This document shows, piece by piece, positions 52,619 through 58,701 of a stretch of DNA of 64,000 bases; within the stretch, counting starts at the first letter, position 1, and every line of letters starts with the position of its first letter. Origin of the DNA: Desulfuromonadaceae bacterium. Lineage in GTDB: Bacteria > Desulfobacterota > Desulfuromonadia > Desulfuromonadales > Desulfuromonadaceae. The notes under the pieces were generated by a model, which searched no databases, had not been told where the DNA came from, and worked only from the letters and a program-made list of their open reading frames with translations. A program made the position numbers and the translations under genes. The stretch spans positions 62,001-126,000 of the forward strand of contig JAFGXV010000019.1 in the NCBI GenBank assembly GCA_016936455.1, given 5' to 3'.

Positions 52619-52634
52619 TCGACAATTTTGTCGA
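52619..52634. promoter_or_regulatory. candidate activator-binding site (UAS) TCGACAATTTTGTCGA
   Basis: 16-bp perfect palindrome ~100 bp upstream of a sigma-54-like promoter; 14-bp core repeated at 58688. Confidence 0.65.
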
Positions 52635-52710
52635 AAACATTTGTACCCACTCGTCCAATGGGACCATGGATCGGGCGATCGACTCCTTGAATCAAGGATT
52701 TAGATGCCAT

Positions 52711-52726
52711 AGGAATGGCTTTTGCA
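52711..52726 (+). promoter_or_regulatory. candidate sigma-54 promoter AGGAATGGCTTTTGCA
   Basis: GG-N10-GC spacing with TTGCA at -12; ~32-38 nt before in-frame ATG codons 52758/52764. Confidence 0.6.
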
Positions 52727-52757
52727 AAGTATTTTCGACGTATTATTTTTACGATGG

Positions 52758-53732
52758 ATGGTGATGGTGCTGAAACGGTGTAACCCGGGGTGGGCTGTCC
52801 GGCTGGTTTTCATGGTGCTGTTTGTGCTGATTTCTGGTGGGTTGTCTCAGGCCGCGGTAGAAACGCTGCTGGCTGTTGGTTATGCCGACAACGCTCAGGA
52901 GACGCGTGACGGAACCGGCTCGCCATTCAGTGTTTATCAACTTGAAGGTCGGCTGGAATTGGTTCCGGTGTCTCCGTGGGGTGTTGAGGTCTATGGCCGG
53001 AGTGATTACCGTGACTACTGGCGGTTGGCGGACAATTACAGCCTCGAAGCCGGAGGTCGGTTGGAACGGACGGTCTGGGAGGGGCGGCTGGCGGTTGCCA
53101 TGTTGACGAGTATTCTGTGGTATCGGGATGATCTGCAGCCCGACGACGCACGCAATGACTATCAACTGGCCAGTGAGCTGACGCTGTATCTTGACGAGCG
53201 CTGGTCCGCCGGACTGTCCCTGACGTATGTCTGGGCAGACTATCGTGGTCGCGTCGAAGAGTCGACGGCCGATGCCTCCGGTCCAGGGGAATCCGGTCAA
53301 GGCGGGGGGCGCTCTCCGTCGCAGGGCGAGGCGGTGGACATGTTTTCCCGTTCACGGGAGGATCGGTTGTGGACCCTTGGCGGTCGGCTGGAATGCCATC
53401 TTTCCGCCGACTGGCAAACCTCTGTTGTGGTGAGGCTGGCCGATTGTGATTCGACCATCCGACGTGAATCCTGCGACGAGCTGGCGGTGGAAAATAACTG
53501 GGTCTGGCAACTCGCCTGGCACTGGCGAGCTGAAGCCTGGTGGCATCTGGTCTGGCGCCGCTATCATCAGGACAGTGAACGGAACAGAAAAGTTGGAGCC
53601 CTGCTGGCCTGGCAGTGGCTCGACAACAGTGAGATTGCGTTGTCCTGGCAGCTTCTGGAGGCCGACGCTGATCGTGATGACGATAATTACCGGGCGATGG
53701 TGAGCCTATGCGCGCTAAAATGGTTTTTCTGA
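52758..53732 (+). CDS. exported protein, putative outer-membrane beta-barrel
   Basis: Signal peptide (VRLVFMVLFVLISGGLSQAA) then alternating W/Y-rich strands ending ALKWFF. The track start 52722 (TTG) overlaps the -12 element, so a start at 52758 or 52764 is preferred. Confidence 0.75.
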   Translation: MVMVLKRCNPGWAVRLVFMVLFVLISGGLSQAAVETLLAVGYADNAQETRDGTGSPFSVYQLEGRLELVPVSPWGVEVYGRSDYRDYWRLADNYSLEAGGRLERTVWEGRLAVAMLTSILWYRDDLQPDDARNDYQLASELTLYLDERWSAGLSLTYVWADYRGRVEESTADASGPGESGQGGGRSPSQGEAVDMFSRSREDRLWTLGGRLECHLSADWQTSVVVRLADCDSTIRRESCDELAVENNWVWQLAWHWRAEAWWHLVWRRYHQDSERNRKVGALLAWQWLDNSEIALSWQLLEADADRDDDNYRAMVSLCALKWFF

Positions 53733-54097
53733 CAATCTTTGCGACGTTCCTGACGCTGTTGGTGCTCGAACCGGGGTCCCTGCAGGCGGCAGAGGTGTCG
53801 GCGCGCATTCTGGCGGTGGACCGTGCCCGGCAGCAGCTGCAGTTGGAACTGAAGACGGAACAGGGAACGCAGGAGGTGATGCTGGACTATCGCGAAGGGG
53901 CGATGCCGTATGGCCTGCAGCTGGGGGATCGGGTCGATCTCTCTCTTGCCGACGGCACTTCAGTGGTCGAGGATGTCCGGCCGATGGCAGCAAAAGGTGG
54001 CCGTGTGGATCCCACCGGTGTGCGGTCGCGACTTTCCTTGTCCCGCGGGTCGCGTTCCCTTTCGTCTTCAGGTGGCAACCACCGGGGTCATCGTTGA
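53708..54097 (+). CDS. small exported hypothetical protein
   Basis: Signal peptide (VFLTIFATFLTLLVLEPGSLQAAE) and a strand-rich domain; overlaps both neighbouring genes. Confidence 0.75.
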   Translation: MRAKMVFLTIFATFLTLLVLEPGSLQAAEVSARILAVDRARQQLQLELKTEQGTQEVMLDYREGAMPYGLQLGDRVDLSLADGTSVVEDVRPMAAKGGRVDPTGVRSRLSLSRGSRSLSSSGGNHRGHR

Positions 54098-55623
54098 GAC
54101 CGCCCGGTTTTTCATTTCCCCTTGCCCAGCCCTGGAAGGTCAATCTGCTGATCTTTGCCTTGCTGCTGGCGGGCGTTCTCAGCTATTTTTTCTGGCAGAT
54201 ACGGTCCTCGCGCGAACTGTTTGAAGAGCATCTGTCCGAGCACAGCCGGTTGATTACCCAGATTGTGGCCAGCAGTGTCGAAAACGCCGAGCAGGCGGAA
54301 CAGGTTGTCGAAGCTGTTGTCACCACTTTTTTGCAAAATACGGGTCGCTTTGTCGCCTATCTCGATGCCGTCGAGCCGTTTACGCCCTCGGAGCTGGCGG
54401 CGCTGGCAGCAGAAAACGGCCTGACCGGGCTGTGTCTGGAACGCCCGGATCAGCCTCCTGTCAGTGCTCCGGCGGGCTGGTTCCAGCGGCCGGATGGCTT
54501 GCGCAGTGACCAGCTGACACTGCTTCATCAGTCCGAGGCCCACCAGTATGTGCTGGTTCTGCCGCTCAGCGCGGCGCAGGGGACGGTTATTTTGGGATTA
54601 CCGGCGCGGCGGATTGAAGATCTGATGGCCCAGATGGATGTGCCGCAGATGCTCGAGACGCTCAGCCAGCTGACGGGGATTGCGGCGCTACGACTCGAGG
54701 AGGGCCAGACTCCTGCTAGCGAGGTCCAGCTTGCGGACGGGTCAGGCCGACGGCTGCAATGCCTGGGAGATAAAACCCTGGTGCTCGAAACAGCGTCGGG
54801 ACCGTTGAACCGCCGTATTGCTCAGCTGTGGCAGCAGTTCTGGTGGTTTGCGGCGACCCTGACGCTCAGCGGTCTGCTGTTGTCCTGGTTGCTCTACCGT
54901 TATCAGAGCCGTTATCTGCTCCATCGTCAGATCCTGGAGCGCGAGCTGGCCCAGCAGCGTGAGGATGCGTCCCTTGGCCGGGCCACGGCCACTATCAGCC
55001 ACGAGATTCGCAACCCCCTGAATGCTATCGCCATGGGGCTGCAGCGACTGCAGTTGGAACTACCGCAGCTGGAGGCGGAACAGCGCTGCCTGATCGAAGC
55101 GATGACCGAAGCGGTTCAGCGTACCAACGGCATTGTGCGGGGACTGCAGAAATATACGCGGCCCCTGGCGCCGTGCCGGCAGCCGCTGGATCTCTCCGGC
55201 GTGGTCGAAAAGGTGCTGACCCTGTATCGCGATCAGGCCATGCAGCAGCAGGTTAATCTGGATGTGCGACTCGAAGCCGTCGTGCTGGACGGGGATGCCG
55301 ATCTGCTGGGGCAGCTGGTGGAAAATCTGCTGAAAAATGCACTTGAGGCCCAGCCGGAGGGGGGGGTCGTCCGCGTTCGGCTGCAGCGGCAGCAACAGCA
55401 GGCGGTGCTGATTCTGGACAACCCCTGTCCCCACGTGGAGGACAGCCTGATCGAGAAGATGGAGCAGCCTTACTTTACCACCAAAACCCGCGGCAGCGGT
55501 CTGGGATTGAGTCTGGTCGGCAAGATTGCCAAAGCCCATGAGGGTGTGCTGACGCTCCGTCGTTTGTACGCCGGCTGGCTGCGGGTCGAGCTCGTTTTGC
55601 CGCTTAAAAGGAGTGCAGCATGA
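54094..55623 (+). CDS. membrane sensor histidine kinase
   Basis: Two TM segments flanking a periplasmic region; ATISHEIRNPLNAIAMGLQRL H-box; GSGLGLSLVGKIAKAHEG HATPase. Confidence 0.95.
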   Translation: MRPPGFSFPLAQPWKVNLLIFALLLAGVLSYFFWQIRSSRELFEEHLSEHSRLITQIVASSVENAEQAEQVVEAVVTTFLQNTGRFVAYLDAVEPFTPSELAALAAENGLTGLCLERPDQPPVSAPAGWFQRPDGLRSDQLTLLHQSEAHQYVLVLPLSAAQGTVILGLPARRIEDLMAQMDVPQMLETLSQLTGIAALRLEEGQTPASEVQLADGSGRRLQCLGDKTLVLETASGPLNRRIAQLWQQFWWFAATLTLSGLLLSWLLYRYQSRYLLHRQILERELAQQREDASLGRATATISHEIRNPLNAIAMGLQRLQLELPQLEAEQRCLIEAMTEAVQRTNGIVRGLQKYTRPLAPCRQPLDLSGVVEKVLTLYRDQAMQQQVNLDVRLEAVVLDGDADLLGQLVENLLKNALEAQPEGGVVRVRLQRQQQQAVLILDNPCPHVEDSLIEKMEQPYFTTKTRGSGLGLSLVGKIAKAHEGVLTLRRLYAGWLRVELVLPLKRSAA

Positions 55624-58080: not shown

Positions 58081-58119
58081 AAAGAAAAAGGAGGGGCCTT
58101 CACCTGCGCGAAGACCCCT
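58081..58119 (-). terminator. terminator/attenuator between the small exported protein gene and the beta-barrel gene
   Basis: Minus strand AGGGGTCTTC-GCGCAGGT-GAAGGCCCCT then TCCTTTTTCTTT. Confidence 0.65.
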
Positions 58120-58142
58120 GTGTGAAGGAACAAAAATTGTGA

Positions 58143-58469
58143 TCAGCGTGTGCCGCCGGCGCGACGCATGGAGCGCGGCGCGTTGAGGGCACCGCTGCCA
58201 TCCTGCAGCAGCAGCTGATCGCCGCCAGCAGCGTAGGTGTCGCAGATGCCGTCGTTGTCAGCATCGACAAAGTTGGCCGCATTGGCGCCCAGGCCGGTGC
58301 CCGGTGTCGGGCGGCTGTCAACCACGCCGTCGCCGTCCGTATCGATCAGGTACAGGCAGTCACCGGAGCCGGCATTGGAACCGCGAAACTGGGAAGCCGC
58401 AGCCGGCAGGCTGCACAGCAGAAGAGCCATCAGGGTCAGGGACAGCAGGGACAGAGAGCGTTTTTTCAT
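58143..58469 (-). CDS. small exported protein with two DxDxDG calcium-binding-like motifs
   Basis: Signal peptide MKKRSLSLLSLTLMALLLCSLPAAA; DTDGDGVVD and DADNDGICD. Start trimmed from track 58589 to the MKKRS methionine. Confidence 0.8.
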   Translation of the reverse strand: MKKRSLSLLSLTLMALLLCSLPAAASQFRGSNAGSGDCLYLIDTDGDGVVDSRPTPGTGLGANAANFVDADNDGICDTYAAGGDQLLLQDGSGALNAPRSMRRAGGTR

Positions 58470-58529
58470 GGTTTTTTCCTTTCCATTGGATAAGAGAGTG
58501 GAGTAACAAACGATTCGCTGTTCTGATAT

Positions 58530-58545
58530 GGCAAACCCCATGCCT
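58530..58545 (-). promoter_or_regulatory. candidate sigma-54 promoter AGGCATGGGGTTTGCC
   Basis: GGCATG-N4-TTGC with exact GG-N10-GC spacing, ~60 nt upstream of ATG at 58469. Confidence 0.65.
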
Positions 58546-58687
58546 GTTTGACGGGAAAATCTTCGCCTCGCTATTTTATTTTTTAACACACTGAATTTTA
58601 ATGACTTTTTGTGCTTGGCTTGTCGGATAAACTCTCGGGTGTTACGAAACGCTCCTTATTGCAGGCTCGACGATCTGCGCTGTCGGG

Positions 58688-58701
58688 CGACAATTTTGTC
58701 G
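58688..58701. promoter_or_regulatory. candidate activator-binding site (UAS) CGACAATTTTGTCG
   Basis: Identical 14-bp palindrome to 52620-52633; preceded by TGTCGGGCGACA, giving extra half-sites. Confidence 0.65.

What the first reader, a model, noticed from the sequence alone, without database searches (positions are those of the whole stretch)
52619..58701. Self-contained sigma-54 two-component regulon controlling two beta-barrel proteins and a small DxDGDG exported protein
Seen: an operon with overlapping genes (beta-barrel 52758-53732, small exported protein 53708-54097, histidine kinase 54094-55623, NtrC-type regulator 55620-56963) faces a minus-strand unit (small exported protein 58143-58469, beta-barrel 57001-58035). 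Both units have GG-N10-GC promoters and the same palindrome upstream. Established: NtrC-family regulators with a GAFTGA-type loop (here GSFTGA) activate sigma-54 promoters from upstream palindromic sites. Inference: the regulator autoactivates its own operon and the facing envelope unit, forming a dedicated envelope-sensing/remodelling module. No known function is recognised for the two barrel proteins.
Basis: partly seen in the sequence, partly recalled or inferred. Interest (0 to 1): 0.8.

Follow-up and report, generated by a model that had tools for sequence, protein, structure and literature searches.

The report
Sigma-54 two-component envelope protein regulon
A sulfur-bacterium genome carries a conserved sensor-and-switch gene pair that very probably turns on its own operon, a set of uncharacterised outer-membrane and secreted proteins and, in four relatives, a distant ferritin-like exported protein, through one shared DNA site and sigma-54 promoters; the wiring is a known type, but what the controlled proteins do is unknown.

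Summary
All six genes, the overlaps and both palindrome-plus-GG-N10-GC pairs are at the stated places. The exact palindrome occurs three times in the 2.54 Mb genome, two of them at these promoters. The six-gene locus is syntenic in seven related genomes (Desulfuromonas relatives). There the small-exported-protein promoter is a perfect TGGCAC-N5-TTGC in 7/7, with a CGACA-N4-TGTCG site upstream. In all, 20 of 21 promoters examined carry the site within 200 bp; chance gives about 4%.

'Self-contained' is not right. Four relatives carry an unlinked gene for an exported DUF2202 (ferritin-like) protein, and all four have the same site exactly 97 bp upstream of a sigma-54-like element. In a distant genome DUF2202 sits in one operon with the DxDGDG and barrel genes behind a similar promoter, an independent link. 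The third site in the window's own genome precedes a 51-aa exported-peptide gene (not conserved).

One barrel is predicted as a 16-strand outer-membrane barrel; the second small protein is an OB fold. The regulatory circuit is well supported computationally; the signal and the function of the exported proteins are inference. It is a new member of a known kind of regulation with undescribed target proteins.

The parts
52620..52633 (.). upstream activator site CGACAATTTTGTCG of the barrel-1/kinase/regulator operon
   Evidence: exact site; orthologous sites in all six relatives with this region sequenced, often two sites 20-22 bp apart
52711..52725 (+). candidate sigma-54 -24/-12 element AGGAATGGCTTTTGC
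   Evidence: conserved as TGGAAy-N5-TTTGy-like in 6 relatives; overlaps the leftmost ATG of barrel 1 in some relatives, so the true start there must lie downstream
52758..53732 (+). barrel 1, signal peptide + outer-membrane beta-barrel (GYxDN motif, C-terminal F)
   Evidence: 4 of 7 members hit BBP2_2 PF10082, best 2e-6; the window copy itself has no Pfam hit
53708..54097 (+). small exported OB-fold protein with invariant D-x-T-G-V-R-S-R motif and R/G/H-rich tail
   Evidence: alignment A3; AlphaFold core strands 29-92; Foldseek OB folds incl. CusF
54094..55623 (+). sensor histidine kinase, two TM segments with an unassigned extracytoplasmic domain, HisKA + HATPase_c
   Evidence: TM segments read from the sequence
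55620..56963 (+). NtrC-family response regulator (receiver D51, Sigma54_activat, GSFTGA, Fis HTH)
57001..58035 (-). barrel 2, predicted 16-strand outer-membrane beta-barrel
   Evidence: AlphaFold pLDDT 80, pTM 0.76; Foldseek porins, highest TM listed BcsC/PelB
58143..58469 (-). small exported protein with two DxDxDG-type Ca-binding-like loops (DTDGDGVVD, DADNDGICD)
   Evidence: alignment A2, 56-72% identity in seven relatives
58531..58545 (-). sigma-54 -24/-12 element AGGCATGGGGTTTGC of the DxDGDG/barrel-2 unit
   Evidence: 8/10 here; perfect TGGCAC-N5-TTGC in 7/7 relatives
58688..58701 (.). upstream activator site CGACAATTTTGTCG of the DxDGDG/barrel-2 unit
   Evidence: exact site; exact CGACA-N4-TGTCG in 8/8 genomes

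Best explanation
A dedicated NtrC-type two-component system. The kinase senses something outside the inner membrane and phosphorylates the regulator. The regulator binds CGACA-N4-TGTCG sites (often as a tandem pair about two helical turns apart) and, with sigma-54 RNA polymerase, turns on its own operon (barrel 1, OB-fold protein, kinase, regulator) and the facing unit (DxDGDG protein, barrel 2). In some relatives it also turns on an unlinked exported ferritin-like DUF2202 protein. SHOWN by sequence: genes, sites, promoters, co-conservation, the extra target. INFERRED: binding, sigma-54 dependence, autoactivation. Most likely role of the products (inference, about 0.3): an outer-membrane export or anchoring apparatus in which the 16-strand barrel handles or anchors the DxDGDG protein or a polymer, with OB-fold and ferritin-like exported partners for protection or metal handling. 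The confidence below is for the regulatory circuit, not for the role of the products.
For: Exact site 3x per genome, two at these promoters. Both barrels present in the same 8 of 58 relatives searched; all six genes syntenic. Perfect -24/-12 before the DxDGDG gene in 7/7 relatives. 20/21 promoters have the site within 200 bp against about 0.036 expected. Bipartite site+promoter pattern: 13 hits in 14 genomes, 0 with the reversed control; the hits are DxDGDG promoters, DUF2202 promoters, one barrel-1 promoter and three outside the regulon. DUF2202 present in 4 of 8 and all 4 have the site 97 bp from TGGCAC-N5-TTGA. Distant operons DxDGDG-barrel2-DUF2202 and DxDGDG-barrel2-OB-HK-RR. Recognition region ISERVLRYKM of the regulator invariant.
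Against: No binding or expression data. The window's own -24/-12 elements are imperfect. The barrel-1 -24/-12 overlaps the leftmost ATG in several relatives. The DUF2202 promoters have TTGA, not TTGC, at -12. The looser CGACA-N4-TGTCG occurs about 6-20 times per genome, mostly without a sigma-54 element. One distant operon (L126) has no such site within 420 bp although it carries the regulator. DUF2202 was not found in the window's own (79% complete) assembly. rpoN itself was not searched.
Confidence: 0.8

Rival explanations
1. Exopolysaccharide or floc-matrix module: barrel 2 is an outer-membrane polysaccharide export barrel (BcsC/PelB-like) and the small exported proteins are matrix proteins, as in the PrsK/PrsR-PEP-CTERM systems.
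For: 16-strand barrel; highest TM scores in the list are BcsC 0.63 and PelB 0.56; two distant homologues carry an N-terminal TPR repeat; [quoted passage not shown]
Against: No glycosyltransferase or synthase next to the locus; about 9% identity to BcsC, and porins have better E-values; no PEP-CTERM tails; PrsK/PrsR models far below cut-off.
Confidence: 0.25
2. Metal- or oxidant-stress response of the envelope, working like ZraSR/ZraP: the kinase senses a metal or oxidative damage, and the Ca-loop, OB-fold and ferritin-like proteins bind metal or scavenge oxidants.
For: DUF2202 (MJ0754 relative, PDB 3q4n, E 2e-53; that its fold is ferritin-like is from my own knowledge) shares the site; OB fold resembles CusF/SilB; kinase best scores are AtoS and ZraS.
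Against: The OB protein keeps no conserved His/Met/Trp ligands; ZraS/ZraR scores far below cut-off and no ZraP homologue; DUF2202 absent in half of the genomes with the system.
Confidence: 0.25
3. The palindrome belongs to another regulator (a repressor or global factor), and its closeness to sigma-54 elements is incidental.
For: CGACA-N4-TGTCG also occurs elsewhere in the genomes, and in the window the sites lie in divergent spacers shared with pal and nadA.
Against: Constant spacing (97 bp) to -24 elements in unrelated flanks; sites follow the module when the flanking genes change (SurA/mfd in relatives, pal and nadA here); bipartite pattern is near-unique.
Confidence: 0.08

Closest known systems
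ZraSR-ZraP (E. coli/Salmonella sigma-54 envelope stress system)
   Same: NtrC-type two-component system next to a gene for an exported protein it controls, through sigma-54 and upstream sites
   Different: no ZraP homologue; kinase and regulator far below the ZraS/ZraR model cut-offs; targets are two barrels, Ca-loop, OB-fold and ferritin-like proteins
PrsK/PrsR PEP-CTERM/exosortase regulation
   Same: Fis-type sigma-54 two-component system tied to exported small proteins with -24/-12 promoters and enhancer sites
   Different: no PEP-CTERM signal; TIGR02916 63 of 300 bits and TIGR02915 361 of 502.6 bits needed
BcsC / PelB TPR-barrel exporters
   Same: 16-strand barrel fold; TPR repeat fused in two distant barrel-2 homologues
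   Different: no detectable sequence homology, no synthase genes, no TPR in the window protein
DUF2202 (PF09968; MJ0754 structures 3q4n, 3q4o)
   Same: the unlinked target in four relatives is a full-length family member (E 6e-60 to 3e-43)
   Different: exported with a signal peptide; family function unknown; not found in the window's assembly

Membership tests
sigma-54 enhancer-binding response regulator (NtrC family) | receiver domain with conserved Asp, Sigma54_activat domain, Fis HTH | tested here: met
   Pfam E 1e-30, 4e-70, 2e-14; D7, D8, D51, T79 and K101 invariant in eight
sigma-54 enhancer-binding response regulator (NtrC family) | GAFTGA loop | tested here: met
   GSFTGA here, GAFTGA or GSFTGA in relatives; A-to-S at position 2 occurs in validated LevR (PMC3162934)
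sigma-54 enhancer-binding response regulator (NtrC family) | -24/-12 promoters with upstream sites at targets | tested here: met
   20 of 21 promoters
sigma-54 enhancer-binding response regulator (NtrC family) | sigma-54 dependence in vivo | not testable with these tools
   needs rpoN mutant or reporter
PrsK/PrsR PEP-CTERM system | TIGR02916 and TIGR02915 above cut-off | tested here: not met
   63 vs 300 and 361 vs 502.6 bits
ZraSR | ZraS and ZraR models above cut-off | tested here: not met
   132 vs 479 and 363 vs 760 bits
ZraSR | ZraP homologue as target | tested here: not met
   no Pfam match of that kind in the target proteins
TPR-barrel exopolysaccharide exporter | 16-strand outer-membrane barrel | tested here: met
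   AlphaFold model, 16 strands
TPR-barrel exopolysaccharide exporter | N-terminal TPR domain | tested here: not met
   absent in the window protein; present only in distant L124 and L125 homologues
TPR-barrel exopolysaccharide exporter | adjacent polysaccharide synthase genes | tested here: not met
   neighbours are pal, ybgF, nadA, mfd here; SurA-like, sulfatase-like and PAP2-like genes in relatives
DUF2202 as a target | PF09968 above cut-off with shared site | tested here: met
   4 of 4 copies among the 8 system genomes; none found in the window's own assembly

The most novel reading that the evidence does not exclude
DxDGDG protein + 16-strand barrel is the core of an undescribed outer-surface system, spread beyond Desulfuromonas, that works together with exported ferritin-like DUF2202 proteins and is switched as one unit by a dedicated sigma-54 two-component system. 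It may be an export or anchoring apparatus for a surface protein, polymer or mineral.
Probability: 0.35. Interest if true: 0.7.

Novelty: new member of a known kind. Interest (0 to 1): 0.5.

Why it matters
It ties five protein families without known function (two barrels, a minimal Ca-loop protein, an OB-fold protein, DUF2202) into one regulon with a precise DNA code (site, spacing, promoter), so the signal and function can be tested by genetics and reporters. It gives the DUF2202 family, whose role is unknown, a regulatory and operon context.

Tried and rejected
Third exact sites in G005, G007 and G009 other than the DUF2202 one: inside a coding gene or without a sigma-54 unit; treated as chance. 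Extra bipartite hits in G010, G011 and G009:1051082: two are in genomes without the locus, one is unexplained; no sigma-54 element of 8/10 or better at the G009 one. The other CGACA-N4-TGTCG sites checked in G000 and G001: no credible promoter plus exported gene. 51-aa peptide homologues: none in 13 relatives. Barrel-2 relatives in 395 genomes drawn from the phylum: none beyond the window's own. DUF2202 in the genome of L030: none. The DUF5666 protein of L030 as a homologue of the OB-fold protein: not detected by profile. NCBIfam for barrel 1: nothing. Kinase sensor domain: no Pfam assignment. Literature on DUF2202: no paper found.

Full report
CHECK. CGACAA-NN-TTGTCG is present three times in the whole 2.54 Mb assembly, twice at this locus. 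The looser CGACA-N4-TGTCG occurs 10 times against 5 for the reversed control pattern, so the half-site spacing alone is not rare; its pairing with a sigma-54 element is.

CONSERVATION. Barrel 2 and barrel 1 are each found in the same 8 of 58 genomes searched, all in the window's family. In the seven relatives the six genes keep order and orientation. Identity to the window is about 63-65% (regulator), 47-49% (kinase), 41-44% (barrel 2), 56-72% (DxDGDG), 25-38% (OB-fold) and 26-29% (barrel 1). Flanks differ: SurA-like/mfd on one side and sulfatase-like/PAP2-like genes on the other in relatives, pal and nadA/mfd here, so the sites travel with the module.

PROMOTERS. The DxDGDG unit has TGGCAC-N5-TTGC with no mismatch in 7/7 relatives, 96-151 bp after an exact CGACA-N4-TGTCG. 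The barrel-1 unit has a TGGAAy-N5-TTTGy-like element in the six relatives with this region, with one or two sites 43-77 bp upstream; where two are seen they lie 20-22 bp apart, the arrangement expected for tandem activator dimers (established knowledge of NtrC-type activators). In several relatives this element overlaps the leftmost ATG of barrel 1, so the annotated start there is probably too early. Overall 20 of 21 promoters have the site with at most one mismatch within 200 bp; background in 362 kb of the same loci is 0.036 per 200 bp.

EXTRA TARGET. Genome scans for the site led to an unlinked exported protein in G003 and G013. A Pfam search then showed DUF2202 in G003, G005, G009 and G013 only (of 12 genomes searched), and all four copies have the site exactly 97 bp upstream of TGGCAC-N5-TTGA. 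This 97-bp gap is the same as at the DxDGDG promoter of most genomes in that genus. A bipartite search of 14 genomes gave 13 hits and no control hit: the DxDGDG and DUF2202 promoters, one barrel-1 promoter and three outside the regulon. DUF2202 matches MJ0754 (3q4n, E 2e-53). In the window's genome the third exact site lies 161 bp before a 51-aa peptide gene with signal peptide and good ribosome site, with TGGCATGCTATTGGC between; it has no homologue in relatives, so this stays suggestive.

DISTANT RELATIVES. The four full-length barrel-2 relatives found outside the family are all preceded by a DxDGDG-type gene: L030/L127, L124, L125, L126. L124 is DxDGDG-barrel2-DUF2202 in one orientation, behind CGACAAAATTTTCG and TGGCACAGCCAATGC. 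L125 has a similar arrangement with a weaker site and no DUF2202. L126 is one operon DxDGDG-barrel2-OB-kinase-regulator (37% and 54% identity to the window's kinase and regulator) without a visible site. This links DUF2202 to the module independently of the promoter evidence. In L030 the pair diverges from a DUF6502-DUF5666 pair.

PROTEINS. Barrel 2: 16 strands, pLDDT 80, pTM 0.76; Foldseek gives many porins, with the highest TM scores to BcsC and PelB barrels; L124 and L125 homologues add a TPR repeat. Barrel 1: BBP2_2 in 4 of 7 members. OB-fold protein: a five-strand core with low overall confidence, best small-protein matches CusF/SilB but without conserved metal ligands. DxDGDG protein: two Ca-loop-like motifs and an invariant FRG after the signal peptide.

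MECHANISM. Phosphorelay to an NtrC-type activator, binding at CGACA-N4-TGTCG, sigma-54 activation of own operon, facing unit and (in some species) DUF2202. Sites, promoters, domains and co-conservation are shown; binding, autoactivation, signal and product function are inferred. Export/anchoring at the outer membrane is my preferred role for the products, at low confidence; polysaccharide export and metal/oxidant stress are open rivals.

COMPARISON. The circuit works like ZraSR or PrsK/PrsR but is a member of neither. Sigma-54 control of the cell exterior is a known theme (PMC3162934; PMC9850573). The set of target proteins has not been described as far as I could find (no DUF2202 paper in the library).

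Noticed in passing
L001:1184-1339 (-), site L001:1501-1514: 51-aa exported-peptide gene downstream of the third exact site in the window's own genome; no homologue in relatives.
   Followed up: yes
L030:7067-9102 (-) and 9207-10858 (+): DUF6502-DUF5666 gene pair divergent from a DxDGDG-barrel 2 pair; the DUF5666 tail recalls the VRSRL/RG tail of the OB-fold protein.
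   Followed up: partly
L028:1424-2251: barrel 2 is split over two frames in this metagenome assembly (G013), possibly a frameshift or assembly error.
   Followed up: no
L026:8430-9797: a second NtrC-type regulator (42% identical to the module's regulator) near the locus in G008.
   Followed up: no
53708-54097; L056:3379-4158; L124:1360-4237: several exported proteins of the regulon share Gly/Arg/His- or Gln-rich stretches near the mature N-terminus or the C-terminus (RFRG, GYRGG, GRGHH).
   Followed up: no
L023-L025, L027 barrel-1 upstream regions: the activator sites directly follow a terminator-like GC stem and T run at the end of the upstream SurA-like gene.
   Followed up: no
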